A DNA stretch of 64,000 nucleotides from Salipiger bermudensis HTCC2601. GTDB lineage: Bacteria > Pseudomonadota > Alphaproteobacteria > Rhodobacterales > Rhodobacteraceae. Shown piece after piece: positions 345-33,439 of this stretch. Where the stretch lies: NCBI RefSeq assembly GCF_000153725.1, contig NZ_DS022277.1, positions 441,470 through 505,469 on the forward strand. The letters are read 5' to 3'. A program made the translations under genes and the position numbers. The notes beneath the pieces are model-generated. The model ran no database searches, was not told the origin of the DNA, and saw only the letters and a list, made by a program, of their open reading frames with translations. Numbering within the stretch: position 1 is the stretch's first letter; each line of letters starts with the position of its first letter.

Positions 345-3300
345 ATGACGGTCAATTTCGAAAACTACAAGCTCATCGTCGATGAAAAGTTTGACGGGGC
401 GAAAGAGGATCTGAACCTTCACGACGGGATCAGCGGCCTCTGGTCCACGGATATGGAAAAGGGCAACCGGGTCCACAACAGCAAGTTCTCGCTGTTTGGT
501 GATCCCGACCTCACCGATGCCGAGGGCAACAACCTCGGACTCGATCCCTTCACCGTCGAGGACGGCGTCCTCAGCATCAACGTCTCGCGCATCGATCCGG
601 CCAAGCAGGACGACATTCAGGCGGTGCTCGACGCGAGCCCATATGTCATGGCCGGCGCGCAGAATGCCTCGGACATAGAGTATCTGACCGGGATGCTGAG
701 CCTGCACCAAAGCTGGGCCGAGAGCTATGGATATTACGAGGTGCGCGTGAAGATGCCCGCCGGCACCGGGCATCTCTCGGCGCCCTGGCTCACCAGCGCC
801 CACGAAGGCTGGCCGCCAGAAATCAACATGGAAGCGCTGGGGCGCTACGACGGCACCAATGGCCGGGGCATCGACGATGCGATCTGGACCAACGTGCTCT
901 TCAACGACTACGGCATCGGGGAAGAGGCTGATCAGGCGGTGCATGACAGCACCACCGATATCACCAACGTCTACGGCGAGCAGTGGGGAAGCGCCAATCA
1001 GGCGATGCTTGAGAAGTTCGGCTGGGACGAGACCCGCTCCTCGCCAGGAGAGGCGCTCCACGATCCCGACAACAACGAGAAATACGTCTACAAGCGCCTG
1101 GTGGAGCTCGACGAGGTCACCGGCGAGGATGTCGACATCCACGAAGAGTTCTACACCTACGGCATAGAGTGGACGCCGGACCACATCTCGTTCCTGTTCG
1201 GCACCGACTCCTCGAACATGCACGAGATCTTCCGGACCCAGACCCCTGATGATGTCACCACCGACATGTATTTCGTGCTCTGGAACCAGTTCGGCGGCAG
1301 CTTCGCCTGGAACCCGGATGACGACGACAACGCCCCCTTCGAAAGCAGCCTCGACGTCGACTACATCAAGGTCTATGCGCTGAAACCGGATGACGAGACG
1401 GTCCCGGATGCCGCGGATGTCTACATCTATGGTCAAGACGAGGCGCAGACACGCACCCTGACCGACACGGGCAGCCATCAGAGCCGCGACCTGACCGGTG
1501 ACGACGTGCTGACAGGAAACGCGCTCGATAACGTCATCTACGGCGGCAGCGGGTTTGACCAGTTCACCGGCGGCGCGGGCGCCGATACCTTCCGCGTGAT
1601 CCACGGCGAGGGCAACAAGATCATCACCGACTTCGATCCGGGCGAAGGCGACACGCTCGTGCTCGAAGGCTTCAACTTCGCCGACAGCGCCGCCGCGCTG
1701 GCGACGCTGACCCAAGTCGGCACCGACGCATGGCTGATCAACGGCGCCTACCCCTTTGCGCCGCAGACCATCATCTTCGAGAACACCGATATCGCCCGCA
1801 TCACCGAAGCATCGGTGCGCGTGGTCGCACCGCAGAGCAAGGGCCATGATTATGCGTCGCGCATCCGCCAGCTCACCGCGGAATCCTACCTCGGAACCGA
1901 CGGAGAGGACTATCTCAGCGCGCAGATCCAGCATGCCGGCGCCCTCGCGGTGCTGCGCGCCCAAGAGCTGGCAGGCGGGCTTGGAGACGACACCTACGAA
2001 CTGAACGGCGCGACCTATATCCGCGAGCAAGCCGATGAGGGCGTGGACACGGTCCTCGTTCGCGACAGGGTGCTCAACAAGACCTACAGGACCGAGGATG
2101 CGAACGGCAATCTGGTCTACAGCCTGTTCGACATCGACGCCTACACGCTGGGTGCCAATCTCGAGAATGCCAAGCTCTATGACGATACCGTGGACGTGGC
2201 GCTCTACGGCAATGCGCTTGGCAACCGGCTGACCGGCAACGCGCTCGGCACAACCTTCTACGGCGGACTGGGGGATGACCATCTCGAGCTAGGCGGCGGC
2301 GCGGACCTTGTGGGCTACCGCGCCGGCGACGGGCACGACACCATCCTCTCCTTCGGCAGCGATGACACGCTCTCGCTTCTCGGCACCGGCTTTGCCTCCG
2401 CGGCCGAGGCGCTTGCGGCGTTCGAGCAGCAGGGCCGAGATGCCGTTCTTGAGTTCGACGCGGACAACAGCATCACGCTGCGGGACGTGACCGTGTCGGA
2501 GCTCTTGGCAAGTAATATCGCGTTGCCCGTCGAAGACCCCTTCGACGTCGCCGCAGGAGAGCTGGAGCCGGCCGGCGACTACGAGGAGGTGTCCGCGCCA
2601 AAGGCGAACGGCAACCTCGTGGCCGGGGACGCGCCCTCGCGGATCACCGGCGGCGCCGATGGCGATGGCATCTACGGCAACCGCCACGGCGACATTCTCA
2701 GCGGACTCGGCGGCGATGACGTGATCGAGGGCCGCAACGGCGACGACTGGATGTTCGGCGGAACCGGCGATGACAAGCTGCGCGGCGGCAAGGGCGACGA
2801 TCTGATCTTTGCCGAGAACGGCAACGACCGTCTCGAGGGCGGCGCGGGGCATGACATCCTGCTGGCCGGCGCCGGGCGGGACTACGCCGTCGGCGGCGGC
2901 GGCAATGACTTGGTGTATGGCGGGGCCGGAAACGATTACCTGAATGGCAATTCCGGCGACGATGTCCTCGACGGCGGCCGCGACAATGACAAGCTCTACG
3001 GCTCGTCGGGCAAGGACACGCTCGATGGCGGTCACGGCATGGACAAGCTGAAGGGCGGCCTCGATGCCGACGTGTTCGTCTTCCAGACGAGCATCTATGC
3101 CCGCGACTGGGAGGTCGTGGCCCGCAACCGCGCGAGCCAGAGAGACCATGACGCCGCGGTGACCGCAGCCGAGGAGAGTGGCGAGGATGCCCCCGACGCC
3201 GCGTCCTGGGAGTACGAGTTTCTCGGCGCCGACACGGTGATCGATTTCCTGCCGGGCGAGGACAGGATCGACCTTTCGGGGCTGGTCGCGGCGCTCGAGG

Positions 3301-3527
3301 TCGAGGGGGCGAGCCAGAGCGAGCTGGCCGAGATTTTCGTCCGCGACCATCTCATCCTTAGCGAGAAGAACAACGACCTGCTTTTGTCGGTCGACCGTGA
3401 CGGCCCCATGACCGACGACCCAAAGCTGATCGTGAACTTCGCCCGGCTGCGGAATGTCGACATCGCCGACTTCGATCTCGATCGGGACCTCATCCTGACC
3501 GCCGATCACGCGTTGCTCTCGGTCTGA
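345..3527 (+). CDS. RTX-type glycoside hydrolase family 16 protein (ExsH-like)
   Basis: This is a 1060-aa protein with an N-terminal GH16 beta-glucanase fold (about residues 8-345). A beta-roll-like module follows (about 380-490), and glycine/aspartate-rich RTX nonapeptide repeats run from about 767 to 912. No Sec signal peptide is visible; with C-terminal RTX repeats this predicts calcium-dependent type I secretion. The family catalytic signature is ExDx(x)E, but here it reads PPEINMEA, with Glu159, Asn161 and Glu163. The middle aspartate is thus asparagine and one residue is missing relative to the paralogue at 19872 (PPEIDFFEA). By family analogy it would cleave or trim the exopolysaccharide made by the neighbouring genes, as ExsH does for succinoglycan, but the altered motif makes activity uncertain. 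The start ATG follows GGGGCAGG. Type I secretion genes are not in the window. Confidence 0.88.
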   Translation: MTVNFENYKLIVDEKFDGAKEDLNLHDGISGLWSTDMEKGNRVHNSKFSLFGDPDLTDAEGNNLGLDPFTVEDGVLSINVSRIDPAKQDDIQAVLDASPYVMAGAQNASDIEYLTGMLSLHQSWAESYGYYEVRVKMPAGTGHLSAPWLTSAHEGWPPEINMEALGRYDGTNGRGIDDAIWTNVLFNDYGIGEEADQAVHDSTTDITNVYGEQWGSANQAMLEKFGWDETRSSPGEALHDPDNNEKYVYKRLVELDEVTGEDVDIHEEFYTYGIEWTPDHISFLFGTDSSNMHEIFRTQTPDDVTTDMYFVLWNQFGGSFAWNPDDDDNAPFESSLDVDYIKVYALKPDDETVPDAADVYIYGQDEAQTRTLTDTGSHQSRDLTGDDVLTGNALDNVIYGGSGFDQFTGGAGADTFRVIHGEGNKIITDFDPGEGDTLVLEGFNFADSAAALATLTQVGTDAWLINGAYPFAPQTIIFENTDIARITEASVRVVAPQSKGHDYASRIRQLTAESYLGTDGEDYLSAQIQHAGALAVLRAQELAGGLGDDTYELNGATYIREQADEGVDTVLVRDRVLNKTYRTEDANGNLVYSLFDIDAYTLGANLENAKLYDDTVDVALYGNALGNRLTGNALGTTFYGGLGDDHLELGGGADLVGYRAGDGHDTILSFGSDDTLSLLGTGFASAAEALAAFEQQGRDAVLEFDADNSITLRDVTVSELLASNIALPVEDPFDVAAGELEPAGDYEEVSAPKANGNLVAGDAPSRITGGADGDGIYGNRHGDILSGLGGDDVIEGRNGDDWMFGGTGDDKLRGGKGDDLIFAENGNDRLEGGAGHDILLAGAGRDYAVGGGGNDLVYGGAGNDYLNGNSGDDVLDGGRDNDKLYGSSGKDTLDGGHGMDKLKGGLDADVFVFQTSIYARDWEVVARNRASQRDHDAAVTAAEESGEDAPDAASWEYEFLGADTVIDFLPGEDRIDLSGLVAALEVEGASQSELAEIFVRDHLILSEKNNDLLLSVDRDGPMTDDPKLIVNFARLRNVDIADFDLDRDLILTADHALLSV

Positions 3528-3598: not shown

Positions 3599-5533
3599 CT
3601 AGTCGGACAGCCAGTTCCGCTCGGCCGCGAGGGCGCCGAAATGCCGGGCGCCCTCGAGCGTCCAGTGGCTGTAGTCATAGAGCGCCTTGCGCCCGTCCGG
3701 CGTCATCAGAGCACAGCTTTCCTCGGCATCGCTGCACAACAGGTCGCGGCGCGAAAGATAGGGCACGCCCTTTTCCTCTGCGACAGCGCGCACCGACGCG
3801 TTGATCTCTTCGCCGCGGGCAAGTTCATAGTTGTGCCCGAGGTGGTTGACCACCTCCGCGTCCGGCGTTGCCTGCTCGCGCCGCACGTACCAGTCGAACA
3901 CCGGCAGCCCGTTCTCGAGCCGGTACTCGACGGTGTTTCCCACCAGCGCCACGCGCTTGCCCGCCCCGCCGATCGCGTCGATCAGCGCGCCAAGGCGCGA
4001 CATGGTGATCTCGGTATAGCGCGGCGCGATCAGCACCAGGTCGCTGGCCTCGAAATTCGGCGACGCCAGCAGCGTCTCGATCTGGCTCTGCGGGAAGTCG
4101 TCCCCGAGGCCGAACCGGGCAAACTCGTGATCGGGGAACAGATCTCCGTTGAGGTAAAGCGCGTTGAACATGTCCTTGCTGTGCGAGTTGCCAAGGATCA
4201 GCACATGGGTCTTGTCGGAATCGCGGAACCACAGGTTCTCGGCCTCGGACCGGGATGGCCCATGCGCATTGTCGGCCGTCACGACCTCGTCCCCGGCGAT
4301 GTCGTCGAGAACCGACCAGGATGCGTTCTTGAGCGCCTCGTTGTCGTAATCGTTGTCACCGTAGATCGCAGCGAGATCGCCCAGCCGGTTCGCAAAGCCG
4401 TTCTGGACCAGCGTCGTTGCCGAGAACACCAGAACCGCGGCAAGACACGCCGTCATGGTCGATACGAAGAGCCGTGGCGAGGCACGGAACCGCAGCGGTT
4501 TCTCGACCAGAAGATAGCCGAGCCACGACAACAGGATCGTCAGCGCGAGCCAGACCAGCATCTCGAGTCCCGGCGCCTCGCCCATGGAATTGAGCCGCCC
4601 GAAGGCGAAGATCGGAAAATGCCAGAGATACAGCGAATAGGACAGTTTGCCGACCATAACGAAGGGGCGCGTCGACAGCAGGCGCGTTACCGGCTCACGC
4701 GGGTCCGCGAACCAGATCATCGCGCAGGTCGCGAGGATGACCGGGATGGTCATGTAGCCGGGATGCGAGATGTCGCTGAGCTTGAGGCTCCAGAGTGACG
4801 CGAGCAGCGTCAGCAGCGCGAGGGACGGAATCACCCGCGCGGCTTTCGAGCCGCGCAAAGCGTCTGGGTTGCGCAGCGACATGTAGGCCAGAAGCGAGCC
4901 GCCGAGCATTTCCCACGCCCGGCTGGCCGGCGAGAAGAACGAGAATTCGCGCACAAATGCGGTGCTCACTTGCGAGATCACGAAACTCAGGATCATGAAC
5001 GCAACAATGATCACACCGATGCGGTGCCGACCAAGCCACCGGTAGAGCACCAGCAGCGCCACCGGGAACACGAGATAGAACTGCTCCTCGATGGCCAGGC
5101 TCCAGGTGTGCAGGAAGGGCTGCAGCAGACCCGACTGGGCGCCGTAATCGTTGAGCTCGAAGAACCAGAAGAAATTGCTGTAGAAACCGAGTGCCGCGAA
5201 CAGCGACTTGGCAAAGCGCTCCATCTCGGTCGGCAACAGGATCGCCCACGCGACCGGGATCGTCGCCAGCATCACCAGAAGCAGCGGTGGCAGGATGCGC
5301 CGGGCACGTCGCCAGTAGAACTGCACCACGTCAAAACGGTCCGCCTCGTCAAACTCGATCAGGATGATCTTGGTGATGAGATAGCCGGATAGAACGAAGA
5401 ACAGGTCCACCCCGAGATAGCCGCCGGCAAGAAGGCTTCCATCGCCGAAAGGGATCTTGAGGTGATAGAGAATGACCGCGCTGACCGCGATCGCGCGCAT
5501 GCCATCGATTTCCGGGCGATATCCGAGTTTCAT
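3599..5533 (-). CDS. OafA-type membrane acyltransferase with C-terminal SGNH domain
   Basis: This is a 644-aa protein. Residues about 1-360 form an acyltransferase-3 membrane domain with roughly ten hydrophobic segments; it begins with the family motif RPEIDGMRAIAVSAVILYHL, whose histidine is conserved. A C-terminal SGNH hydrolase-like domain follows, with the GNSHS nucleophile block (about residue 445) and a SHWTLEGARH block near the end. Proteins of this architecture O-acylate surface polysaccharides using acyl-CoA from the cytoplasm and a periplasmic transfer domain. It is the last gene of the minus-strand exopolysaccharide block, 53 bp after the sulfotransferase, and converges on the GH16 gene. 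The acyl group is probably acetyl, but the sequence does not prove it. Confidence 0.88.
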   Translation of the reverse strand: MKLGYRPEIDGMRAIAVSAVILYHLKIPFGDGSLLAGGYLGVDLFFVLSGYLITKIILIEFDEADRFDVVQFYWRRARRILPPLLLVMLATIPVAWAILLPTEMERFAKSLFAALGFYSNFFWFFELNDYGAQSGLLQPFLHTWSLAIEEQFYLVFPVALLVLYRWLGRHRIGVIIVAFMILSFVISQVSTAFVREFSFFSPASRAWEMLGGSLLAYMSLRNPDALRGSKAARVIPSLALLTLLASLWSLKLSDISHPGYMTIPVILATCAMIWFADPREPVTRLLSTRPFVMVGKLSYSLYLWHFPIFAFGRLNSMGEAPGLEMLVWLALTILLSWLGYLLVEKPLRFRASPRLFVSTMTACLAAVLVFSATTLVQNGFANRLGDLAAIYGDNDYDNEALKNASWSVLDDIAGDEVVTADNAHGPSRSEAENLWFRDSDKTHVLILGNSHSKDMFNALYLNGDLFPDHEFARFGLGDDFPQSQIETLLASPNFEASDLVLIAPRYTEITMSRLGALIDAIGGAGKRVALVGNTVEYRLENGLPVFDWYVRREQATPDAEVVNHLGHNYELARGEEINASVRAVAEEKGVPYLSRRDLLCSDAEESCALMTPDGRKALYDYSHWTLEGARHFGALAAERNWLSD

Positions 5534-6458: not shown

Positions 6459-7754
6459 TCAGCCTGCCTGCCCCCTGCCGAGCGCGGCGCGGGCGGTGCG
6501 CATGTCCTCGCGGGCGCTGACGACGAGCATCACGACCATGACCATTGCGAAGTCGTGGCCCCGATAAAGCGCCGGCCCGAGGAACGACGTCGCGACCAAG
6601 GTGAGCAGCAGCACGATTCCGATCGCCGCCGCCACCGATCCGGTGAGCGACAGAAGGGCGGCGAGCCGGTAAAGGCCGGCACCGATCAAGCCGGCGACCG
6701 CCAGCAGCCCCAGCGGCCCCGTCGAGACGAGGATCTCCAGCGCGAAATTGTGGAACGAGCTGCTCGTGATGGCCCCGGCATGCTGCGTCGCCAGGCGCAG
6801 GACCGAAAATTCCGAGGCCTTCCAGAACGCTCCGAACCCGACGCCAAGGACGGGATGCTCGCCGATCACCTCGCCGGCCACCTCCCAGATTTCCGTGCGG
6901 CCGGTCAGCGTCGCGTCCTTGCCGACGGCGTTGAGCACGAAGGTCACCGGATCGTAGCCAAGCACCGTCAGCACCAGCGGCGCGATGGCAAAGATCACCA
7001 TCGCCCCCACGAACAGCAGGACGACCACCATCGGCGGTGTCCGATCCCGGCACAGGAAGAAAAGCACATAGGCCATTGCGGGCAGCAGAAGCAGCGCCGT
7101 CGCCGACTGCGAAAGCGCCAGCGACATCAGCACCATCGCCATGGCGAGCAGCAGCCAGCGTTTCGAGACCCGCGAAATGGTCCGCGTCGGCATCAGCCAC
7201 AGCGCGAGGATGGCCAGCGCGGCAATCAGCACGCGCAGGCCAAGCATGCTCTTGTGCGAGAAGATCCCCGCCAGACCGCCAGCGCGGGTGAAGGCCGGCC
7301 ACGGGAAAATCCCGGTCGCCCAGTGCAGCAGCGACAGGGCCGCGGCCACCGAGAGGATGACAGCGACCGCGCGGATGATCAGCGTGAGCGAATAGCGCCA
7401 GCCGAGGAAGGTCGCGATGATGCATGTCATCAGCAGCTGGATACCGCCCACGAGGCTCTCGGACGGGGCCGACGACCATAGCACCGAGGACAGGCAGATG
7501 AACGGGTAGACGAAGACGATCTTGTTGCCAGCGGCAAGCGCCAAGAATTGCGGAAAGATCATCCCGATACGCAGCAAGGTCAGCCCGTAGCACAGCAGCC
7601 AGCTCAGGGTCTGCACCGGCCCGAGCTTGACCAGCATGTCGGAGCTGGCGGCGATGGTCAGAACCAGCAAGGTCGAATCGATCAGCGCCCAGAGCTGTTC
7701 TCCCGGGCGGGTGTCATCAGGTGCGCCGTAGGTGATCTGCTCGGTGGCCGCCAT
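6459..7754 (-). CDS. O-antigen ligase/polymerase-type membrane protein (Wzy-like)
   Basis: This is a 431-aa polytopic inner-membrane protein with about ten to twelve hydrophobic segments and the large periplasmic loop typical of the Wzy_C/O-antigen ligase family. Recognisable family blocks are GGLAGIFSHKSMLG (about residue 150) and, after the loop, the SSSFHNFALEIL stretch. Because the locus also has a flippase and an ExoP-type copolymerase, it most likely polymerises the lipid-linked repeat units in the periplasm, equivalent to ExoQ. It lies 9 bp from the upstream sulfotransferase and 92 bp before the next one, so it is part of the same transcription unit. A ligase role cannot be excluded from sequence alone. 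Confidence 0.82.
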   Translation of the reverse strand: MAATEQITYGAPDDTRPGEQLWALIDSTLLVLTIAASSDMLVKLGPVQTLSWLLCYGLTLLRIGMIFPQFLALAAGNKIVFVYPFICLSSVLWSSAPSESLVGGIQLLMTCIIATFLGWRYSLTLIIRAVAVILSVAAALSLLHWATGIFPWPAFTRAGGLAGIFSHKSMLGLRVLIAALAILALWLMPTRTISRVSKRWLLLAMAMVLMSLALSQSATALLLLPAMAYVLFFLCRDRTPPMVVVLLFVGAMVIFAIAPLVLTVLGYDPVTFVLNAVGKDATLTGRTEIWEVAGEVIGEHPVLGVGFGAFWKASEFSVLRLATQHAGAITSSSFHNFALEILVSTGPLGLLAVAGLIGAGLYRLAALLSLTGSVAAAIGIVLLLTLVATSFLGPALYRGHDFAMVMVVMLVVSAREDMRTARAALGRGQAG

Positions 7755-7763
7755 ATCGGTCGC

Positions 7764-8588
7764 TCAGCGCAGACTGCGCGCGTGTTCAAAGATCTCGAGA
7801 TCCGGGGCACAGAGCGCGCGCAGGGCCTCCATCTCGGCTTGGGGAATGTCGGGCTTGCGGTCAGGTGCCGAGTTCAGCTGCGACATCCGGAGCGACACCC
7901 CGAAGATCTCGCGGTAGCGCGAGAAGAAACTGTCGATGTCGTCCAGGAAGCCGATCAGGGCGAATTTCTCCACGCGGGCCTTGGCGAGCTCGATCGCCGC
8001 CGGAAGGTCTGCGTCGGGAATATCGTTGCGGCTCGCGAGATAGCGCAGAAAGACCCTGGCATGCCGCTTCGCGACATCGCTGGCGAGATACTCCTCCATA
8101 CCGCCGGCCACGACCCCGGTGCGCTGCGCCATGCGGAAGTTGGAGACCGTGCGCGCCACCGGGTCGCGCATCATGGTGACGTATTTGTAGGTGTCTCCGA
8201 AATGCCGTTCGGCCTTGTCGGACCAGAAGACATGGCCGTGGATCAGCATGGTGTCCCACGCCATGTGCTGCAGCATCATGGTTTCGCGCAGGTCGAAGAC
8301 CATCTGCCCGGTGTCGAGATCCTCGTGGCAGAGAAAGGCGTCATCCTTGTCGAAGGCCTCGATCGCAAGCGCCCGCCGGGTTGAGACCGCATCGATCACG
8401 CCGATGCGCTGGTTCACCGGCACCGTGGCGTACATCGCTTCCGACAGGGAGGTCCCGCCACATTTGGGAAGGTGCAGGTAGACGCTGCGATGTTTCGGCG
8501 CGGCGCCGGGAAAGGAACGTCGTCCGCGACCGGAGGCGATGGCCAACCGTCTGGTCATGCGTTCCCTGAAAGGAGCCTTGCGCGCCAT
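7764..8588 (-). CDS. sulfotransferase, second of the locus
   Basis: This is a 274-aa protein with the sulfotransferase P-loop-like segment SVYLHLPKCGGTSLSEAMY (about residues 35-53) and a 3'-phosphate-binding block YVTMMRDPVARTVSNFRMA (about 137-155). The HLPKCGGTS form is characteristic of the heparan-sulfate 2-O-sulfotransferase/sulfotransferase family 2 branch, so it differs from the other two in the locus and may sulfate a different position. The N-terminus (about 1-30) is basic and probably disordered. An AGGAGAG sits 6 bp before the ATG. It is the first gene of a short run (sulfotransferase, polymerase, sulfotransferase, acyltransferase) that follows a noncoding gap after the small RTX gene. 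Confidence 0.82.
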   Translation of the reverse strand: MARKAPFRERMTRRLAIASGRGRRSFPGAAPKHRSVYLHLPKCGGTSLSEAMYATVPVNQRIGVIDAVSTRRALAIEAFDKDDAFLCHEDLDTGQMVFDLRETMMLQHMAWDTMLIHGHVFWSDKAERHFGDTYKYVTMMRDPVARTVSNFRMAQRTGVVAGGMEEYLASDVAKRHARVFLRYLASRNDIPDADLPAAIELAKARVEKFALIGFLDDIDSFFSRYREIFGVSLRMSQLNSAPDRKPDIPQAEMEALRALCAPDLEIFEHARSLR

Positions 8589-8812: not shown

Positions 8813-8842
8813 AAAAAACACCCCCGGAAAACCCGGGGGTGT
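8813..8842 (-). terminator. intrinsic terminator of the small RTX gene
   Basis: On the minus strand a perfect 10-bp GC-rich stem (ACACCCCCGG pairing with CCGGGGGTGT, 5-nt loop) is followed by six T residues. It lies 28 bp after the stop codon of the RTX gene at 8871. This is a textbook rho-independent terminator, and it isolates that gene from the downstream sulfotransferase. Confidence 0.92.
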
Positions 8843-8870
8843 CGAAATTTTGGCCTGACGATCTTCGAAA

Positions 8871-9398
8871 TCAGAAGATGTCGTCGTAGTCAGCTCCGCT
8901 CACACCAATCATGTTGATGAAGCCGCCGTTGTCGAGCTCGACAAGGATACCGTTCGAGGTCTCGGTGTAGCCGGTCGCGGTAACACCGCCTTCGAGACGC
9001 ACGGAGTCGCCTTCGGCCATGTCGAAATCCACGACCTTGGTGGTGCCGGTGGACACCGTGGTGAAGGCGAACGTGTCAGCGCCGTCGGCACCAACCATGA
9101 TGTCGTCGCCCGGACCGCCGTAGAGAACGTCGTCGCCCGTGCCGCCATTCAGCACGTCGTCGCCTTCGCCACCGCCGAGGGTGTCGTTGCCTGCACCGCC
9201 TGCAAGGGTGTCATTGCCCTCGCCGCCGGCCATGGCGTCGTCACCCCAGCCACCTTTCAGACGGTCGTTACCGACGCCGCCCTTGATGTAGTCGTCGCCG
9301 CCTGCGCCGTTAATAAAGTCGTCGCCGCCTGCGCCATTGATGAAGGTATCGCCGTTCGAGTCGATGATCGACTCATTTCCGTTAGACAAAATGCTCAT
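8871..9398 (-). CDS. small secreted RTX calcium-binding protein
   Basis: This is a 175-aa acidic protein made almost wholly of RTX nonapeptide repeats (GGxGxDxUx; about residues 15-110), followed by a C-terminal segment, SGADYDDIF at the very end, that resembles type I secretion tails. There is no enzymatic domain. The tandem FINGAGGDD repeat near the N-terminus is an exact in-frame duplication at the peptide level. I chose the ATG at 9398 because AAGGA lies 8 bp upstream. An ATG three codons earlier overlaps that site and is less likely. It has its own AT-rich upstream region and strong terminator, so it is a monocistronic gene inside the polysaccharide block. A calcium-binding matrix protein that associates with the anionic polymer is a reasonable inference, not shown. 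Confidence 0.85.
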   Translation of the reverse strand: MSILSNGNESIIDSNGDTFINGAGGDDFINGAGGDDYIKGGVGNDRLKGGWGDDAMAGGEGNDTLAGGAGNDTLGGGEGDDVLNGGTGDDVLYGGPGDDIMVGADGADTFAFTTVSTGTTKVVDFDMAEGDSVRLEGGVTATGYTETSNGILVELDNGGFINMIGVSGADYDDIF

Positions 9399-9716
9399 CG
9401 GAATCATCCTTTTTTGAACCAATTAACAATTTTGAGCATACATCCGCCCCAAATTTGCCGCAATCAAAAACCCGCGACGACTTACAATAACTTGATGGAA
9501 CTAAATTAATACAACCTTATCAATATCTTGAAGTGCTCATGCCTATTTTGAAAGCATTCCAGATCAGACACAGTCCGCCCAGTTTTTGCCCCACTTTCCC
9601 TCAATAGGAGAAATTTCGATCGCCACGCCACCCAAGGTGAAATCGGCGTCGGATTCGACCTCACGGGGATCACTGCTTCCCCACTCGTCAGGCTGCGAAC
9701 GAGCCTGCAGCCGCCG
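9399..9716. promoter_or_regulatory. AT-rich promoter region of the small RTX gene
   Basis: This is a 318-bp noncoding stretch between the RTX gene start and the end of the upstream sulfotransferase gene. The portion at about 9420-9560 is markedly AT-rich (runs such as aattaacaatttt and acttacaataac), in sharp contrast with the surrounding GC-rich coding DNA. It presumably holds the promoter of the minus-strand RTX gene. No confident promoter boxes or terminator for the upstream operon could be assigned. Confidence 0.5.
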
Positions 9717-19719: not shown

Positions 19720-19871
19720 ATCCAATCCTCCAAAAAGAGCGTGATCGAAAATTCGCAAGATCCCGCACGGGATTAACCCGCTCCGTGCGCTATACCAATT
19801 CGACCATTCTGCAAACGCAGAAATCATTCGGCCCTCTGCTTTTTCCAGCCCTGTCTTCAGGAGCCCACCAC
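19720..19871. promoter_or_regulatory. divergent promoter region, flippase / GH16
   Basis: This 152-bp stretch lies between the flippase TTG start and the ATG of the Sec-exported hydrolase. Both genes are read outward from it, so promoters for both strands are expected here. It contains GGAGGA, the flippase ribosome site, at 19726-19731. I could not assign -35/-10 boxes with confidence. Confidence 0.5.
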
Positions 19872-24865: not shown

Positions 24866-25555
24866 GTTCAACTTTCCTTTGGTCGTAGCTTGTGCCGCGA
24901 GTGCCGCGGGTTTTCGTTCCCAGGGGCCAAAATCGTGGGGAATGCGGACGAATTTCGGGCACGGTCGGGCGTTTTGCGGGACATTTCTGAGTGGCATTGA
25001 GACAAAGTTTAGTCTCGCCGGACGTGAGTTTGCCTGAAACTAGATCGCCGCCATTCACCCAAGGGTTGATCACCTGTCACCTCAAAGGAGACCAGCGTGA
25101 ACAAGGGCTTAGCGCGATGGCTGATCTGCGACGTTGCGCCGCGATGCGGCTGCAGAGTGGCGTGCTGCATGGCGGCATGAGGGCGATATTGCGGCGGCGC
25201 TCCTTGCAGCGTCCAGATCCGGCGCCGCGCACGAAAAGATCGCGCCGGAGCCAATCGTGGCCGCCGAACGGCGCGGGTTCGCGTCGCAGGCGCGGTGCGA
25301 ATCTCATGATCATGCTGAAAGCAGCGCGACAGGCTGGCGAGAGTTGCAGCCGCTCACGATCCCGTGAGGGTTGATCCGTGCAGCGGGGAATCTCTAAAGC
25401 AATAGAAATCTTAAGAAATGGTAATCACGTTTCACCTTCAGAAACTTTTATGCGACAAAAACGCCTATTTCCCGCGATTTCGGCAAATATTGTTCTCCGA
25501 TCAGAAACGCTTGCGGTATTGTTCTTGGACCGCCCATTGGAATTGGGAGAGCAGA
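24866..25555. other. 690-bp noncoding stretch between protease and small membrane protein
   Basis: No gene of coding character is visible. The part next to the protease (24866-25080) should hold its promoter; it includes a short hairpin-forming GAGAC...GTCTC inverted repeat near 25007-25018. The middle (25080-25330) is GC-rich without a credible start site. The right part (about 25380-25500) is AT-rich and probably carries the promoter of the plus-strand gene at 25556. Confidence 0.45.
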
Positions 25556-25941: not shown

Positions 25942-26625
25942 TTACATTCCGGTCTTGCCGAGCACTGCACCCACTGTGAGGAACAGGATGCGGACATCGC
26001 CCATGAGCGAAACACCGTTGTGGTAGGCCACATCGAGTTGAACGCGCTCCTCGTAGGAGACGTCGTTCCGGCCGGAGACCTGCCAGAGGCCGGTGATGCC
26101 CGGACGCATGGCAAGGTAGGCCCATGCGGCACCGCCATAGCGCTGGAGTTCGGGTTCGGTCACCGGGCGCGGGCCGATCAGGCTCATCTCGCCGCGCAGC
26201 ACGTTCCAGATCTGCGGCAGTTCATCCAGCGAACTGCGGCGCAGGAACGCACCAAGCCGCGTGACGCGGGGATCGTTGCGCAGCTTGCGGTCGCGCTCCC
26301 ACTCGGCGCGGGCGGCGGGATCGTTGCGGAGCAGCTCCTCGAGACGCTCCTGTGCGTCCGGCACCATGGTGCGGATCTTCCAGCAACGGAACTGGGTCCC
26401 ATTGCGACCGACGCGCTTGTGACCGAAGAAGCCTGGACCACCCTCGGCCCGGACGGCGATGTAAAGAACCGCGATGACCGGCAGCAGAATGGGCAGCATC
26501 AGAATGGAGAGGACGATGTCGAAAGCGCGCTTGGTAAAGCTTCCGTTGCGGGCCGACCGCAGATCGTTCGACCTGTCCGACCCTGCGGTGACGATGTCGT
26601 TCACATTGGTAGAAGTGTTAGACAT
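25942..26625 (-). CDS. exoY: ExoY-type undecaprenyl-phosphate sugar-phosphate transferase
   Basis: This is a 227-aa initiating transferase of the bacterial sugar transferase family. One N-terminal membrane hairpin (SFTKRAFDIVLSILMLPILL) is followed by a cytoplasmic catalytic domain. Its family motifs are KRVGRNGTQFRCWKIRTM, LRRSSLDELPQIWNVLRGEM, the IGPRPV block and RPGITGLWQVSGRN. The short form without the N-terminal PglC/WbaP extension matches ExoY. It attaches the first sugar-1-phosphate (galactose or glucose in known relatives) to undecaprenyl phosphate and thereby starts repeat-unit assembly. It is monocistronic, with a long upstream region and a terminator, which suggests separate regulation of the committing step. 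Confidence 0.92.
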   Translation of the reverse strand: MSNTSTNVNDIVTAGSDRSNDLRSARNGSFTKRAFDIVLSILMLPILLPVIAVLYIAVRAEGGPGFFGHKRVGRNGTQFRCWKIRTMVPDAQERLEELLRNDPAARAEWERDRKLRNDPRVTRLGAFLRRSSLDELPQIWNVLRGEMSLIGPRPVTEPELQRYGGAAWAYLAMRPGITGLWQVSGRNDVSYEERVQLDVAYHNGVSLMGDVRILFLTVGAVLGKTGM

Positions 26626-27211: not shown

Positions 27212-29095
27212 TCAGAGCAACGACAGAAGCGCCGCGCCCGCGTCACGGCCGTTCTGTTGCATGCCATGTGCGGTGTAGTGCGGGTCATCCGCGCCGCCGA
27301 GTTCGTTTCCGGTCTCCGGCACCACCACTCGAAAGCGGTCGATCGCCCACGCCGCGTCGCCGCTATCCTGATCGAGACGCAGCTGCGCCGCCCGCATCGC
27401 CGCCCCGCGACCGTCATAGGGGGCAGGCTCGTAGTGCTGACCGACGCTCCACATCACCATCGGCACATCGGCGATATCGGACCGCAGATCGCTGACGAAC
27501 TGGCGCATCTGGTCCATCCACTGACCCGAGACGCTGTAATCGCCTCCAAACAGGTCGTTCGCACCCTGGCTCCACACCATGCCGACAATCTCGTGCGCCG
27601 GCCCCAATGCATCGAGCGCGGCCTTCATGGCGAGGAGCTCGGACCACATCCGGCTGCCGGTGGTGGCCACGGCCGAGGATTTGCGCCAGTCCTCGGTGTT
27701 CATGAAACCCGACCCCGGGTCGCCGAGCGCCATCACGAGAAGCGGCCGCCCGCGCGCCGCCGACCAGCCGACCAGCGCACCGGCCACCGCATGGACGGGC
27801 GACATCCGCCGCGCCTCGACCGCCGCCACCGGCTCGATGCAGGGTTGCGGCACGTGGCGAACGCTGTCGGTGGTCGGATAATTGCCGGTCGCCCGCAGGC
27901 AGGGCATGTACCAGATGCGCGGATCGAAGGCGGTCTCCCGTGCCGAGGTCGGGATCTCGTCACCGAAGCGCTCGGACGTGGCATTGGCGCTGTTGCTGTC
28001 TCCGCCGACGATGATCACGTCGGAGGCCACGAGGTTGGGATCGACGGTGGACAGGTCGTAGGCGGCGATCGCCCCAACAGAGCCGTCGTAATCGGTGCTG
28101 GGTTGCAGATCGAGGCGCGTTGCCGCACTCGTCATGTCCGCGGCCGGGATGACCTCGTGATCCATGTAGGGTGCGGTCAGCTGGCGACTCGGCGACAGGC
28201 CCGGCGCAGCGAACCGCGCCCTCAGGCTGCCGGCGGAGACCTCTTGGTCGAAACGGATGAAATGGGCGTGCCCCGGTGTCAGCGCCGCCGCCAGTGACAA
28301 TCGCGCGGCCTGTCCCGCCGTGCCGCCCGCCACCGGGCTGCGCAGCCGTCCGTTCGCGACCTCCCAATTGCCCTGAAGGTCGATATGCGCCACGTCGTCG
28401 AGGGAGGACTGAGCCGCGGTGAAGAGGTTCGGCGGCGCCATCAGCCCCACCGGCCCCGCCCCTGCCGCGACCGAGATCGCAAACGCCGCAAGGCTCACGC
28501 TCGCGCCGTCCGCATCCGTGACCCCGAGGACAAGACCCGAGCGGGTCTCGACCTCGGTCGGCGTGCCCGCGATCGCCCCGCTCGACGGGTCAAACAGCAG
28601 ACCCGCCGGCAATTGCCCGGAGACCAGCGTGAAACTGTAGGGCGCGGTGCCGCCGCTCACGTCGGGAGAGAAGCTGTAGGCAACACCGACCGTTGCCGCG
28701 CTCGCAGGTGTCCCGGTCAGTGCCAGCGGATCCGAAGGATCCTGCGGATCTTGCGGGTCCTGCGGCTCCGGAGCGATCAGCGGCTGAACGCTGCGCCGGG
28801 CCACCATCTCGCCATGCATCAGCACCGAGATATTGTCGGCCACGCCTGCCCAGACATTGTAGACATAGCTGCGCCCTTCCTCGAGCACCTCGAGCGTCTC
28901 GGGGTCGAGGTCGACATCACCTTCGGCAGTCCGCTGGATCAGCGGCGCCTGCACGTGGTCTTCTGCCACGGTGACCGTGACGAACTGCCCCGGTGCGAGG
29001 CCGCTGACCCGGACCCGAAGCGTTTCTCCACAAAAATAGGCCAGCCGCCTGCTCAGCCCGCGCTGCGCCGCCTGTGCATCGATCATCTGTATCAC
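27212..29095 (-). CDS. SGNH/sialate-O-acetylesterase-type hydrolase with Ig-like domain
   Basis: From the GTG start this is a 627-aa protein. Its N-terminal beta-rich region (about 1-110) leads to a DPQDPQDPQDPSDP linker and a putative immunoglobulin (He_PIG) domain (about 120-205, with ASAATVGVAYSFSPDVSGGT and GLLFDPSSGAIAGTP). The SGNH esterase domain follows, with block I VIIVGGDSNSANA (about 360), block III-like VWSQGANDL (about 510) and the catalytic DPHYTAHG block near 602. WSQGxND resembles acetyl-xylan/sialate esterases that remove O-acetyl groups from carbohydrates. The GTG has GGAGG 6 bp upstream, better than the ATG three codons later. No Sec signal is obvious. It follows the export gene in an operon and may de-acylate the polymer or anchor to it. 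Confidence 0.75.
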   Translation of the reverse strand: MIQMIDAQAAQRGLSRRLAYFCGETLRVRVSGLAPGQFVTVTVAEDHVQAPLIQRTAEGDVDLDPETLEVLEEGRSYVYNVWAGVADNISVLMHGEMVARRSVQPLIAPEPQDPQDPQDPSDPLALTGTPASAATVGVAYSFSPDVSGGTAPYSFTLVSGQLPAGLLFDPSSGAIAGTPTEVETRSGLVLGVTDADGASVSLAAFAISVAAGAGPVGLMAPPNLFTAAQSSLDDVAHIDLQGNWEVANGRLRSPVAGGTAGQAARLSLAAALTPGHAHFIRFDQEVSAGSLRARFAAPGLSPSRQLTAPYMDHEVIPAADMTSAATRLDLQPSTDYDGSVGAIAAYDLSTVDPNLVASDVIIVGGDSNSANATSERFGDEIPTSARETAFDPRIWYMPCLRATGNYPTTDSVRHVPQPCIEPVAAVEARRMSPVHAVAGALVGWSAARGRPLLVMALGDPGSGFMNTEDWRKSSAVATTGSRMWSELLAMKAALDALGPAHEIVGMVWSQGANDLFGGDYSVSGQWMDQMRQFVSDLRSDIADVPMVMWSVGQHYEPAPYDGRGAAMRAAQLRLDQDSGDAAWAIDRFRVVVPETGNELGGADDPHYTAHGMQQNGRDAGAALLSLL

Positions 29096-29206
29096 GCAAA
29101 ACCTCCACGGTGGATTCCGCATGAGGCTAGGGCACACCGGATTAACCAGGCCCGACGGCTCCGAACGTTGCCACGGCCATGCTCATGGCGCGGCGCGGGG
29201 CATGTC

Positions 29207-30421
29207 TCAGTTCGCGACCTCGTCCTCGAGGGGGCGGATCGCGACCAACAGCGTGTCACCAGGCAGGATCGGCGTGGACATGGAGATTTCTCCCTCGGTG
29301 CCGGTGTCACTGCGGCGGCTCTGGATCTCGAAATCCAGCCCGACGATCTGCGACGCCACCACGGCGGCAGCACTGCCGCTGCTGAGGATACTCACCTGTT
29401 CCACGGCCTCGCTGTAGGAGATCGTCTGCAATGCAATCTGCTCGCGGGCGTCATTCACCCCGTCGAGCGCATCCTGCCGCTGCGTGGCGAGATACTGCAC
29501 CCGTTCGCGCTGCGCCGAAGCGATGGCACGGGTCGCGTTGATCTTCGCGGCCTCGAGTTCGAGAACCTTGCTGCGCGCATCGGCCTCGCGCTGCTCCGCC
29601 GCCGAGAGGTTCGACGCGGTCTGCAGGCCGCGTTCGGAAAGCTGGCGCGCCGCCGCGAGCGCATCCGCGGTGCTGGCGACGATCTCGTCCTGAACGGAGA
29701 TCCGCGCGTCGAAGTTCTCGCGCTGGTTCTCGATCGTAGCGATCTCGCTCTCCCAGAATTCCAGAAGCGTGCGCGTGCGCTCGCGCAGCGCGTCGAGCTG
29801 AGCCTGACGCTCCGAGACCATACCCTCGAAGTTCACAAGCCCCGGCGCCGGAACCCCCTGCATCAGGGCGGAGTCGACCGACACCGGCGCATCGCCTTCG
29901 GCCAGACGGGCCTGATGATAGGCCAGATCCGCAACCGCTCGGGCGAGATTGAGGTTCGCGACTTTCATGTCGTTCTCGACCATCGAACGCAGACGCAGAA
30001 TCTCGGTTCGGGTCAGCCCCTGCACCTGACTGCCGCCGGCCATGGCGAGGGCGGAAGAGACGGTCATCCCGGGAAAGAACTCGACCATGCCGGGGTTGAG
30101 CACGTCACCAGCGACGATCACCGGGGCATAGGAGACGAGCATCAGGCTCACGTCGGGATCAACGAAAAACCCCTGAGCGACAAGCTCCGCCTCGACCATG
30201 GACTCGGCCTCATCGAGGGTCAGGTCGGCGACGGTGATCCCGCCGACATCTACGAGCCGGATCTGACCGTTGGCATCAACGACCGCGCTGACTTCCTCTT
30301 CCTCGCCGGACCGGCGCACCTCGACCACGTCGCCCGGCGCCAGCCGGTATTCCTGTGCCCCCGCGACAGAGGCAAACGCCACGATACCGAGAAAGCTGAG
30401 CAGTCGGAGCCCGATACACAT
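29207..30421 (-). CDS. exoF: ExoF-like outer-membrane polysaccharide export protein
   Basis: This is a 404-aa protein with a signal peptide (residues 1-21, ending ASVAGA-QEY). A poly_export domain begins EYRLAPGDVVEVRRSG and an SLBB-like segment (VIVAGDVLNPGMVEFFPGMTV) follows. A long helical/coiled-coil part (about 190-345) and a C-terminal beta segment with LPGDTLLVAI complete it. This arrangement is that of ExoF in the succinoglycan system, an OPX protein with an extended periplasmic helical region. It forms the exit path for the polymer with ExoP. AAGGA precedes the ATG at 30421. The upstream extension of the frame is rejected because the signal peptide starts here. The downstream esterase gene is about 110 bp away. 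Confidence 0.88.
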   Translation of the reverse strand: MCIGLRLLSFLGIVAFASVAGAQEYRLAPGDVVEVRRSGEEEEVSAVVDANGQIRLVDVGGITVADLTLDEAESMVEAELVAQGFFVDPDVSLMLVSYAPVIVAGDVLNPGMVEFFPGMTVSSALAMAGGSQVQGLTRTEILRLRSMVENDMKVANLNLARAVADLAYHQARLAEGDAPVSVDSALMQGVPAPGLVNFEGMVSERQAQLDALRERTRTLLEFWESEIATIENQRENFDARISVQDEIVASTADALAAARQLSERGLQTASNLSAAEQREADARSKVLELEAAKINATRAIASAQRERVQYLATQRQDALDGVNDAREQIALQTISYSEAVEQVSILSSGSAAAVVASQIVGLDFEIQSRRSDTGTEGEISMSTPILPGDTLLVAIRPLEDEVAN

Positions 30422-30590
30422 GGTTTCAATTCCTTCCGTTACAATCGGCCGAAGTGTTGCCGCACATGGCGTCAGAAACAACTCAATTATTGCCCCGCTG
30501 CAGCGGAAGTCGCGCCTTTGTGGCGCGCCGGCCCGACCGGTGACACGCCCACCGCGGCCATACGTGGCGACGGCAAGTCTGCCGAACAGA

Positions 30591-31964
30591 TCAGCCGAGA
30601 ACTGCCCGGTGCAGCGCAGCAAGCCCCGCAGCCATGAGCGCCTCCGCCCCGGCCTTGTCCGACGCCTCGACATAGAGCCGCAACTCCGGTGCGTTTCCGG
30701 AGGGGCGCACATGCACGATGCAACCGTCGGTCAGCGTCATCCGGACACCGTCGGTCAGATCCGTGCCGGCCTCATCACCTCCAAGCTCGGCCAAAAACGA
30801 TGCGCGCGCCTCGGCGCTGTCTGCGAGCCGCGCCACGAAGGGTTGCGAGCGCTCCTGTGGCACCTCCTGCAAACGATCCGCCATCGTCACCACCGGCGGC
30901 TCCTGCGCCACCCGCGCCGAGACCGTGCCGTTTCCGGCTGCGATCAGCGTCATGATCAGCGGCAACATGCAGTCGCGTGTGGCGAGCGATGCCAGCGGAC
31001 CCGCCGGGCCCTGCGCCTCGAAGCCCAGCAGGAAGCCCCCGTTGGCCTCGTAGCCCACCACCTTGCCGCCGGCCTCTTCCATGCCCGCGATCACGAAGGG
31101 CGAGCCGATCCGGGTCAGCCTTACCGCCCCGAACCCCTTCTTCTGCACGCCCGAGTTCGACGAGATCGGCGTCACCACCGTCTCGGCCCCCAGCATCTCG
31201 GCGGTGATCTGGCCCATGACGTCGCCCGGCACGATGGTGCCGGTCTCGTCCGACAAGAGCGGCCGGTCGCTGTCGCCATCGGTCGAGACCAGCGCGTCGA
31301 GCCCGTCGGCCTTGACCCACGCCGCGATCTGCGCACGCGTGTCTGGATCGACCGCCTCGGTGTCGACGGGAACGAAGGTCTCCGAGCGGCCATATTCGAC
31401 CACCTCCGCCCCAAGCCCCTGCAGGATCGCGGCGAGATCGTCGCGGCCCACGGCAGAATGGGCATAAAGCCCGATCCTGCGCCCGTTGAGCGCGAACGCG
31501 CCACAGGCCTCGATATAGCGTTCGACGAAGCGCGCGGCGGCGTCCTCGTCCTGCGCCATTTCGCTCTCGGCCGTGCCTGTCGCACGCCCGAGCGCGCCGT
31601 TGATCGCCGCCTCGTCGGTCTTGGTGATCTCGCCGGTCCGAGAATAGAACTTCAGCCCGTTGCGATCCGCCGGGATGTGGCTGCCGGTCACCATGATCGC
31701 CCCGGCGCCGACCTCCTGTGCCGCCAGCGCAAGCGCCGGCGTCGGAAGCGCCCCGCAATCGATGACCCGGACGCCCTCGGCCCGCGCCGCCGCCGCAATA
31801 TCCGCCGCGATGCGCGGGGAGGACGGGCGCAGATCGCGCCCGAGGCACAGCCCGTTGCCGATGTCGCAGGCCGCGATGAAGGCCCGCACGTGGTCGGCGA
31901 CCAGCTCGGGCGTCAGCTCTGTCACCAGGCCGCGCAGGCCGCTGGTGCCGAATTTCGGTGCCAT
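30591..31964 (-). CDS. manB: phosphomannomutase
   Basis: This is a 457-aa alpha-D-phosphohexomutase. Family elements are FGTSGLRG at the N-terminus, the phosphoserine loop MVTGSHIPADRNGLK (about 92-106), the metal-binding DGDSDRPL (about 225-232), sugar-binding ANGGFLLG, and the phosphate-binding RPSGNAPELRLYVEA near the C-terminus. The active loop reads TGSHIP rather than TASHNP, a variant seen in several proteobacterial phosphomannomutases. It converts mannose-6-phosphate to mannose-1-phosphate for the guanylyltransferase encoded 41 bp upstream, so GDP-mannose (or a derived sugar) is probably a donor for the polymer. Confidence 0.88.
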   Translation of the reverse strand: MAPKFGTSGLRGLVTELTPELVADHVRAFIAACDIGNGLCLGRDLRPSSPRIAADIAAAARAEGVRVIDCGALPTPALALAAQEVGAGAIMVTGSHIPADRNGLKFYSRTGEITKTDEAAINGALGRATGTAESEMAQDEDAAARFVERYIEACGAFALNGRRIGLYAHSAVGRDDLAAILQGLGAEVVEYGRSETFVPVDTEAVDPDTRAQIAAWVKADGLDALVSTDGDSDRPLLSDETGTIVPGDVMGQITAEMLGAETVVTPISSNSGVQKKGFGAVRLTRIGSPFVIAGMEEAGGKVVGYEANGGFLLGFEAQGPAGPLASLATRDCMLPLIMTLIAAGNGTVSARVAQEPPVVTMADRLQEVPQERSQPFVARLADSAEARASFLAELGGDEAGTDLTDGVRMTLTDGCIVHVRPSGNAPELRLYVEASDKAGAEALMAAGLAALHRAVLG

Positions 31965-32005: not shown

Positions 32006-33439
32006 TCAGCCCTTCGCCCCCTGCCCCCGCGAATAGACATCCTCGTAGCGCACGATGTCGTCCTCGCCCACATAGGAGCCGGTCTGCACCTCGATCAGAA
32101 CCATCGGCACCTTGCCGGGGTTCTCCATCCGGTGTTTCGCGCCGAGCGGGATGTAGATCGACTCGTTCTCGGTCACCAGTTTGACGGTGTCGTCGCAGGT
32201 CACCTTGGCCGTCCCCTCGACCACGATCCAGTGCTCGGAACGGTGGAAGTGGCTCTGCAGCGACAGCGAAGCGCCGGGATGCACGACGATGCGCTTCACC
32301 TGGAAGCGCGAGCCGACCACGAGGCTCTCGAACCAGCCCCAGGGACGGCGATCCTTGGGGAACTCCACCGCCTGCTTGGCACCCTTCGCCTTCAGCGCGT
32401 TGACCGCAAGCTTGACGTCCTGCGCCCGATCCTTGGGCGCGACGAGCACGGCGTCGTTCATCGCCACCGCGACGATGTCCTTCAGGCCGATGCCGACCAG
32501 CTCCACGGTCTCGCTGTCAGACCGCAGCAGCGAGCCCGCACAGTCGATCGCCGTGGCGGTGCCGTGGGTCACGTTGCCGCTCTCGTCCGGCCCGGCCTCG
32601 CGCCAGATCGCGTCCCAGCCACCAAGATCCGACCAGCCGGCATCGAAGGGCACAACCTCGAGGCCTGCGGCCTTTTCCATCACCGCGTAGTCGATCGAGA
32701 TGTCCTCGGCCCGCGACCACGGCTCCGCCGCGAGCCGCAGGAAGCCCAGATCGATCTGTGCCTCGTTGACCGCCGCGGTCACCGGCGCGACGAGCTGGCT
32801 GGCATGGGTATCGAACGCGGCGAGGATGTCCTTGACCCGGAACAGGAAGATGCCGGCATTCCAGAGGAACCCGCCGCTGGCGAGCATCTCGGCCGCCGTC
32901 GCGGCATCCGGTTTCTCGACAAAGCGCTTGAGCGGCACGGTGTCACCGCCGCTCCCGTCCAGTTCGAGATAGCCATAGCCGGTCTCGGGCCGGTCCGGGC
33001 GGATGCCGAACAGCACCAGCTTGCCCGCCTCGAGCGCTTTCAGCCCGGTCTCGACCGCGGCGCGGAAGGCTTCGGTATCAGCGACCTCGTGATCTGCCGG
33101 CGCCACCAGCATCGCGGCGTCGGGATCCTTGGCATGCAGGTACAGCGCCGTTGCAAGCACCGCCGGCGCGGTGTTGCGCCCCTCGGGCTCGATCAGGATC
33201 GCGCCGGGGTCGATGCCGACGGCGGCGAGTTGTTCGGTCACGATGAAACGGAAATCCGAGTTGGTCACGGCGATGGGCTTGTCGAAGCAGGCCGCCCCGC
33301 TCAGCCGCATCACGGTCTTCTGAAACAGGCTCTCTTCCTCGAGAAGGCTGGCAAACTGCTTCGGAAAGCTCTTCCGCGACACCGGCCAGAGGCGTGTGCC
33401 GGAACCACCACAGAGAATGACGGGGGTGATCTTTGTCAT
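32006..33439 (-). CDS. manC: mannose-1-phosphate guanylyltransferase / mannose-6-phosphate isomerase
   Basis: This is a 477-aa bifunctional type II enzyme. The N-terminal nucleotidyltransferase has VILCGGSGTRLWPVSRKSF followed by PKQF (residues 7-29) and the FVEKPD block. The C-terminal cupin is a PMI-II domain with VHPGASLSLQSHFHRSEHW carrying the metal-binding histidines. Length and order match CpsB/AlgA/ManC. It makes GDP-mannose from fructose-6-phosphate together with the mutase encoded next. It is probably the first gene of a minus-strand operon that runs manC, manB, exoF, esterase. GAAGGAG lies about 10-11 bp before the ATG. Confidence 0.92.
   Translation of the reverse strand: MTKITPVILCGGSGTRLWPVSRKSFPKQFASLLEEESLFQKTVMRLSGAACFDKPIAVTNSDFRFIVTEQLAAVGIDPGAILIEPEGRNTAPAVLATALYLHAKDPDAAMLVAPADHEVADTEAFRAAVETGLKALEAGKLVLFGIRPDRPETGYGYLELDGSGGDTVPLKRFVEKPDAATAAEMLASGGFLWNAGIFLFRVKDILAAFDTHASQLVAPVTAAVNEAQIDLGFLRLAAEPWSRAEDISIDYAVMEKAAGLEVVPFDAGWSDLGGWDAIWREAGPDESGNVTHGTATAIDCAGSLLRSDSETVELVGIGLKDIVAVAMNDAVLVAPKDRAQDVKLAVNALKAKGAKQAVEFPKDRRPWGWFESLVVGSRFQVKRIVVHPGASLSLQSHFHRSEHWIVVEGTAKVTCDDTVKLVTENESIYIPLGAKHRMENPGKVPMVLIEVQTGSYVGEDDIVRYEDVYSRGQGAKG

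What the first reader, a model, noticed from the sequence alone, without database searches (positions are those of the whole stretch)
345..33439. Exopolysaccharide locus with three sulfotransferases and three acyltransferases
The locus has every step of a Wzy-type pathway (ExoY, three glycosyltransferases, flippase, polymerase, ExoP, ExoF, GDP-mannose supply). It also encodes three sulfotransferases of different motif subtypes (HLPKCGGTS, GAMKCGTTT, GFNKTATTT) interleaved with three membrane acyltransferases. Three glycosyltransferases plus ExoY suggest a repeat unit of at least four sugars. The product is predicted to be a sulfated, acylated, probably mannose-containing polymer, unlike succinoglycan.
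Basis: partly seen in the sequence, partly recalled or inferred. Interest (0 to 1): 0.8.

Follow-up and report, generated by a model that had tools for sequence, protein, structure and literature searches.

The report
Gene cluster for sulfated bacterial slime
A marine Salipiger-like bacterium carries a complete set of genes for building a secreted sugar polymer that is very probably decorated with sulfate and acyl groups, and two of its sulfate-adding enzymes resemble those that make heparan sulfate in animals; such clusters are known from cyanobacteria, but this version seems undescribed.

Summary
Window 345-33439 encodes a complete Wzx/Wzy exopolysaccharide pathway; three sulfotransferases (ST) of three Pfam families and three AT3 acyltransferases lie inside its GT/polymerase gene runs. 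ST co-factor motifs are intact.

The linkage is not local. A named-genome scan gave 50 ST2 loci; the 35 with at least 38% identity are alphaproteobacterial. Of these, 32 carry a second ST within 10 kb and 28-32 carry Wzy, the three GTs or ExoP (ExoP 19 at a stricter score). The same three ST families together occur in 3 of 35. Conversely, of the 16 of 394 family genomes with the best GT4 matches, 14 have some ST within about 10 kb.

Known relatives: synechan (two STs, Wzy-type); sulfated EPS chemistry in Salipiger mucosus and Paracoccus. Nine literature searches showed no description of this cluster. New variant of a known kind; sulfation is inferred, not shown.

The parts
345..3527 (+). GH16-RTX protein a (1060 aa), probable secreted glycanase-like or glycan-binding protein; catalytic motif reads EINME instead of ExDxxE
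   Evidence: PF00722 8.3e-10, PF00353; motif; 83% in S. bermudensis
3599..5533 (-). AT3 acyltransferase fused to SGNH domain
   Evidence: PF01757, PF19040
5587..6393 (-). ST4: sulfotransferase, PF17784, GFNKTATTT
6459..7754 (-). Wzy polymerase (PF04932, about 11 TM)
   Evidence: hydropathy
7764..8588 (-). ST2: sulfotransferase, PF03567-like, fold of heparan sulfate 2-O-/6-O-sulfotransferase
8817..8843 (-). terminator-like hairpin (12 pairs) after the RTX-only gene
   Evidence: 8 such sites in the region, shuffles give 13.0, so only the strength of this one speaks for it
8871..9422 (-). RTX-only protein, 183 aa
   Evidence: PF00353; RTX hit in 13 of 35 related loci
9717..10556 (-). ST1: sulfotransferase, PF00685, nearest 3-OST/NDST among named solved structures
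10582..11610 (-). AT3 acyltransferase b
   Evidence: PF01757
11638..12585 (-). glycosyltransferase GT2 a (first start codon; true start may be later)
   Evidence: PF00535
12528..13553 (-). glycosyltransferase GT2 b
   Evidence: PF00535
13563..14738 (-). glycosyltransferase, GT4-type
   Evidence: PF13579
14725..15780 (-). AT3 acyltransferase c
   Evidence: PF01757
15838..18213 (-). ExoP/Wzc-like co-polymerase with BY-kinase domain
   Evidence: PF13807, PF13614; TIGR01005 171 bits, below its cut-off
18337..20022 (-). Wzx flippase (true start probably near 19950)
   Evidence: PF01943
19785..21878 (+). GH16-RTX protein b, canonical EIDFFE motif; predicted EPS glycanase (true start near 19872)
   Evidence: PF00722 2.8e-11; motif
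22016..24997 (-). S8 subtilase, P-domain, RTX; role in the pathway unclear
25942..26625 (-). ExoY-like priming phosphoglycosyltransferase
   Evidence: PF02397 208 bits; best NCBIfam WbaP-type, below cut-off
27212..29137 (-). SASA-like esterase (below cut-off) with Ig domain; possible de-acetylase
   Evidence: PF03629 23.5 bits, cut-off 24.8
29207..30712 (-). OPX outer-membrane export protein
   Evidence: PF02563, PF10531
30591..31964 (-). phosphomannomutase/phosphohexomutase
   Evidence: PF02878, PF02879, PF00408
32006..33439 (-). ManC, GDP-mannose synthesis
   Evidence: TIGR01479 above cut-off

Best explanation
The locus makes a sulfated, O-acylated exopolysaccharide by the Wzx/Wzy route. ExoY puts a first sugar phosphate on undecaprenyl phosphate; three GTs extend it. 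The STs have no predicted membrane segment and PAPS is cytosolic, so ST1, ST2 and probably ST4 sulfate the lipid-linked repeat unit before export (inferred). AT3 enzymes acylate it at the membrane (inferred). Wzx flips, Wzy polymerises, ExoP and OPX export; the secreted GH16-RTX protein b probably trims the chain. ST2 plus another, mostly PF00685-type, ST form the conserved sulfation core of a pathway shared by scattered Rhodobacteraceae; ST4 and the AT3 genes are strain-specific decoration.
For: Domains and order. Gaps of at most 65 bp or overlaps inside ExoP-AT3c-GT4-GT2b-GT2a-AT3b-ST1 and ST2-Wzy-ST4-AT3-SGNH (coordinates). Invariant 5'-PSB and R/S of the 3'-PB motif in ST1 (5 sequences), ST2 (36), ST4 (4) (motif names recalled). 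All 5 nearest relatives keep GT4, both GT2, ExoP and Wzy with ST2. 32 of 35 named-genome loci have a second ST within 10 kb. 14 of the 16 best GT4 loci have an ST within about 10 kb. ST and GT/ExoP similarity matrices correlate: ST1-GT4 rho 0.85, ST2-ExoP 0.81, ST2-GT4 0.56, ST2-GT2b 0.53, 0 of 2000 permutations each. ST2 fold is that of HS 2-OST/6-OST. One APS kinase in the genome supplies PAPS. S. mucosus, same genus, makes an EPS with sulfate and acetyl, 0.9% each (PMC2953402, passages).
Against: No chemistry, expression or mutant data. ST2 is absent from 15 of 20 Salipiger genomes and is over 300 bits in only 8 of 394 family genomes, so the module is rare. 2 of 16 GT4 loci show no ST (G116, G253). 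No PAPS genes were seen among the annotated genes of the locus. 3 of 35 loci have ST2 alone. ST2-Wzx (0.40) and ST2-ExoY (0.46) correlations are modest, and correlations include shared species history. The 35 loci include close relatives and are not independent.
Confidence: 0.72

Rival explanations
1. The locus makes an exopolysaccharide, but one or more of the STs (most likely ST4) act on another molecule, such as LPS, a lipid or a peptide, and sit here by accident of linkage.
Against: ST4 lies between Wzy and AT3-SGNH with gaps of 53-65 bp. ST1 and ST2 resemble polysaccharide STs and are linked to GT/Wzy genes across genera.
Confidence: 0.2
2. The polymer is a capsule or LPS O-chain rather than a released exopolysaccharide; the same assembly and sulfation apply.
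For: Wzy_C (PF04932) also covers O-antigen ligases and polymerases; one gene only, so polymerase and ligase roles cannot be told apart by sequence.
Against: ExoP and OPX export genes and secreted GH16-RTX proteins in the locus fit EPS. No WaaL-like second PF04932 gene was found among the ORFs scanned between 345 and 47451.
Confidence: 0.15
3. The locus is silent or decayed in this strain and makes nothing.
For: A same-genus genome (G160) has ST4 and GT pieces in different frames, so such loci do decay. GH16 protein a lacks the canonical motif.
Against: Pathway ORFs in the window are full length, and S. bermudensis keeps them at 78-94% identity.
Confidence: 0.07

Closest known systems
Synechan xss cluster, Synechocystis PCC 6803 (PMC8205485, passages seen)
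   Same: Wzx/Wzy-type EPS cluster with STs of distinct subfamilies, priming GT, PCP; product shown to be sulfated
   Different: Eight GTs and two STs there, three GTs and three STs here; no acyltransferase mentioned in the passages seen; xss OPX is elsewhere on the chromosome; different phylum; its STs were not compared by sequence here
Actinoplanes missouriensis wps-1 cluster (PMC13390465, passages seen)
   Same: Predicted Wzx/Wzy sulfated EPS; two STs of different families, one with a heparan sulfate ST domain; a glycoside hydrolase in the cluster
   Different: Gram-positive, GH26 instead of GH16-RTX; product not verified
Cobetia marina KMM 1449 and Vibrio sp. KMM 8419 sulfated capsules (PMC11766843, PMC11641403, passages seen)
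   Same: Marine proteobacterial sulfated polysaccharides with ST genes in the cluster; structures solved
   Different: ABC-transporter export, PAPS genes inside the cluster
Salipiger mucosus A3T EPS (PMC2953402, abstract and passages seen)
   Same: Same genus; EPS with sulfate 0.9%, acetyl 0.9%, mannose 34%, galactose 32.9% of sugars
   Different: Genes not assigned; the named scan listed no S. mucosus locus, and that scan depends on two short peptide patterns, so a link is unproven; fucose 13.4% there, no strong GDP-mannose dehydratase hit here (best PF16363 162 bits, inconclusive)
Succinoglycan exo locus (recalled)
   Same: ExoY, ExoP, OPX and GH16 glycanases
   Different: More GTs, succinyl/pyruvyl decoration, no STs (recalled)

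Membership tests
Wzx/Wzy exopolysaccharide cluster | priming transferase, GTs, Wzx, Wzy, PCP, OPX together | tested here: met
   Wzx only just above its cut-off, Wzz domain of the PCP below its cut-off
Sulfated-EPS cluster (synechan-like) | PAPS-dependent STs encoded with GTs and Wzy | tested here: met
   co-transcription not tested
Sulfated-EPS cluster (synechan-like) | ester sulfate in the product | not testable with these tools
   needs purified polymer
Sulfated-EPS cluster (synechan-like) | PAPS supply in the genome | tested here: met
   one APS kinase, C6:350540-350998, in a 710-aa frame; not in the locus
Heparan sulfate 2-O-/6-O-sulfotransferase fold (ST2) | overall fold | tested here: met
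Heparan sulfate 2-O-/6-O-sulfotransferase fold (ST2) | PAPS motifs and HGH histidine | tested here: met
   PKCGGT, R141, S149, G118-H119 invariant in 36 sequences; HGHV aligns with HS 2-OST HGHV; catalytic role of that His recalled
Heparan sulfate 2-O-/6-O-sulfotransferase fold (ST2) | hexuronate or glucosamine acceptor | not testable with these tools
   no assay
HS 3-OST/NDST-type sulfotransferase (ST1) | sequence family and catalytic Glu | tested here: met
   1zrh E 1.5e-26, after 3rnl 6.1e-31; E41 aligns with Glu of the EVHFF motif (catalytic role recalled)
Succinoglycan locus | full exo GT set for an octasaccharide | tested here: not met
   three GTs found in the locus; definition recalled

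The most novel reading that the evidence does not exclude
A previously undescribed alphaproteobacterial pathway class: a Wzx/Wzy exopolysaccharide whose repeat unit is sulfated by a conserved pair of glycosaminoglycan-type sulfotransferases (an HS 2-OST/6-OST-fold enzyme plus a 3-OST/NDST-like enzyme), with a swappable third ST and acyltransferases. It is scattered through Rhodobacteraceae and Paracoccus and may be the genetic basis of the sulfated EPS reported from Salipiger and Paracoccus, contrary to statements that among bacteria only cyanobacteria make sulfated polysaccharides.
Probability: 0.45. Interest if true: 0.68.

Novelty: new variant of a known kind. Interest (0 to 1): 0.52.

Why it matters
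Recent papers still state that sulfated polysaccharides in bacteria are made only by cyanobacteria (PMC8205485; PMC13390465), while chemistry reports sulfated EPS from Salipiger mucosus and Paracoccus (PMC4189415 passage) without genes. This locus gives candidate genes for that chemistry, a marker pair (ST2 with GT4) to find producers, and soluble bacterial STs with glycosaminoglycan-type folds that could be assayed directly.

Tried and rejected
Succinoglycan-like product: set aside on GT number and STs. Un-sulfated backbone as a natural experiment: after alone, 4 of 9 ST2-less GT4 loci seemed to lack any ST; others (PF13469; Stf0 PF09037 in G094, PF13469 in G144) reduced this to 2 of 9 (G116, G253), so I dropped the claim. 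PF09037 was not searched on its own in those two. Among the 41 of 394 genomes with a GT4 match at E up to 1e-40 I examined only the 16 best (354 bits or more); 25 were not examined for STs as a set. Fucose supply: PF16363 gave no decisive Gmd. Prevalence in Paracoccus: not obtained (one search failed). Promoter and terminator scans: 1 and 8 sites, shuffles 2.7 and 13.0, so no enrichment. Of 50 loci (L064-L078) were left out of the 35-locus counts as distant or fragmentary; one search shows that of the 13 with at least 10 kb none carries GT4, GT2 or Wzy above 100 bits (one ExoY, one ManC). Of 13 distant within-family ST2 loci (110-225 bits), 9 still lie near ExoY or GT4, so ST-EPS linkage is wider than this clade.
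Full report
What is there. The window lies on an 814-kb contig (C5) of a 5.48-Mb genome. The flank 34-58 kb matches plasmids of Salipiger and Alloyangia in parts (best: 32% of the query at 82.9%), so the contig may be a secondary replicon; not proven. GC content is 65.6% and spurious ORFs abound, so I chose genes by codon-position GC and Pfam/NCBIfam hits.

Anatomy. Two tight gene runs on the minus strand hold the STs: ExoP-AT3c-GT4-GT2b-GT2a-AT3b-ST1 and ST2-Wzy-ST4-AT3-SGNH, with gaps of at most 65 bp or overlaps (coordinates). Between them sits the RTX-only gene with a strong terminator-like hairpin (8843-8817; overall such sites are not enriched). None of the STs has a predicted membrane segment in a simple hydropathy scan. 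Left of the window, C5:428857-430773 encodes a fourth AT3-SGNH and C5:431193-441422 a 3409-aa protein with RTX, cadherin-like and Ig repeats.

Is the linkage conserved? In 149 family genomes ST2 protein matched in 12, six closely (46-100%, own included). The five relatives all keep GT4, both GT2s, ExoP and Wzy with ST2; Wzx, ExoY and GH16b in 4 of 5 each; ST4 in 2 of 5; PMM/ManC in 1 of 5 (14-60 kb examined each). The named scan returned 50 loci. In the 35 with at least 38% identity and 10-kb flanks or less (bit score over 40): Wzy 32, ST1-type 31, GT4 29, GT2a 28, GT2b 28, ExoP 28, Wzx 25, ExoY 19, RTX 13, GH16b 10, AT3 models 8 each, OPX 8, ST4 3. With stricter scores: Wzy 31, GT4 29, GT2a 27, GT2b 28, ST1 22, Wzx 21, ExoP 19, ExoY 18. 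With iterated models 32 of 35 have two or more STs and 8 have three or more (L037 counted as three; two stubs there score 41 and 30 bits), 3 have ST2 alone. The same three families co-occur in L029, L037 (ST4 of another subtype) and L042.

The reverse test. GT4 was sought in 394 family genomes: 41 match at E up to 1e-40. Of the 16 best, 7 have ST2 within about 10 kb (G000, G088, G053, G290, G039, G113, G203). Of the other 9, 7 have another ST: G246, G125, G078, G237, G276 (PF00685-like, next to GT4), G094 (Stf0, next to GT4) and G144 (PF13469, about 6 kb away). G116 and G253 showed none. So an ST near this GT4 is the rule, but which ST varies.

Co-inheritance. Similarity matrices of ST1 and GT4 correlate at rho 0.85, ST2 and ExoP 0.81, ST2 and GT4 0.56, ST2 and GT2b 0.53; 0 of 2000 permutations reach the value in each. 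ST2-Wzx is 0.40 and ST2-ExoY 0.46. Species history was not removed.

Distribution. ST2 occurs in 5 of 20 Salipiger genomes (one very weak), over 300 bits in 8 of 394 family genomes, and ExoY-like genes in 20 of 20. The module is therefore an accessory trait. In G160 pieces of an ST4-like gene and of GT2 and ExoY lie in different frames over 2.6 kb, an apparent relic.

Mechanism. Shown: gene content, motifs, fold of ST2, linkage. Inferred: cytosolic sulfation of the lipid-linked repeat unit from PAPS (one APS kinase), acylation by AT3, Wzx/Wzy assembly, ExoP/OPX export, trimming by GH16-RTX b (EIDFFE; the a protein reads EINME here and in S. bermudensis, and the L042 hit reads EIN too). Mannose and four or more sugars are possible, not shown.

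Literature. Synechan (PMC8205485, passages): Wzy-type cluster with two STs of distinct subfamilies; its authors knew of no STs in other bacterial EPS clusters. PMC13390465 (passages): predicted wps-1 cluster with two STs. PMC11766843 and PMC11641403 (passages): ABC-type sulfated capsules. PMC2953402 (abstract and passages): S. mucosus EPS with sulfate. PMC4148975 (passages): S. mucosus genome, EPS genes listed, no mention of sulfotransferase. PMC4189415 (passages): sulfated EPS reported for Paracoccus. PMC9723792 (passages): STs in alphaproteobacterial MAGs of mats. PMC3230580 (passages), PMC7902896 (passages) and PMC5852497 (passages) added nothing on this cluster. Searches listed no paper that describes an alphaproteobacterial Wzy cluster with STs; only listings were seen for most hits, and subscription papers are not held.

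Verdict. Observation confirmed; interpretation of a sulfated, acylated EPS probable; a new variant of a known kind, with a conserved two-ST core and glycosaminoglycan-type ST folds as its distinctive feature.

Noticed in passing
L106:9724-19953 (own C5:431193-441422, left of the window): 3409-aa protein with 14 Big_9/cadherin-like repeats and many RTX repeats, probable giant adhesin beside the EPS locus; a fourth AT3-SGNH lies at L106:7343-9331.
   Followed up: partly
window 8871-9422: Small RTX-only protein between the two ST-bearing gene runs; RTX hits in 13 of 35 related loci, possibly a calcium-binding matrix partner of the anionic EPS.
   Followed up: partly
window 345-3527: GH16-RTX protein whose catalytic motif has Asn instead of Asp, also in S. 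bermudensis; may bind rather than cut the polymer.
   Followed up: partly
window 22016-24997: Subtilase with P-domain and RTX repeats inside the EPS locus, also in two other related loci; role unknown.
   Followed up: no
G160:C1:685011-687622 (L108): Pieces of ST4-like, GT2 and ExoY-like genes in different frames in a same-genus genome; looks like a decayed polysaccharide locus.
   Followed up: partly
own C6:1624209-1630410: An ExoY paralogue with a PF03567-like ST about 5 kb away, so the genome may hold a second ST-bearing polysaccharide locus.
   Followed up: no
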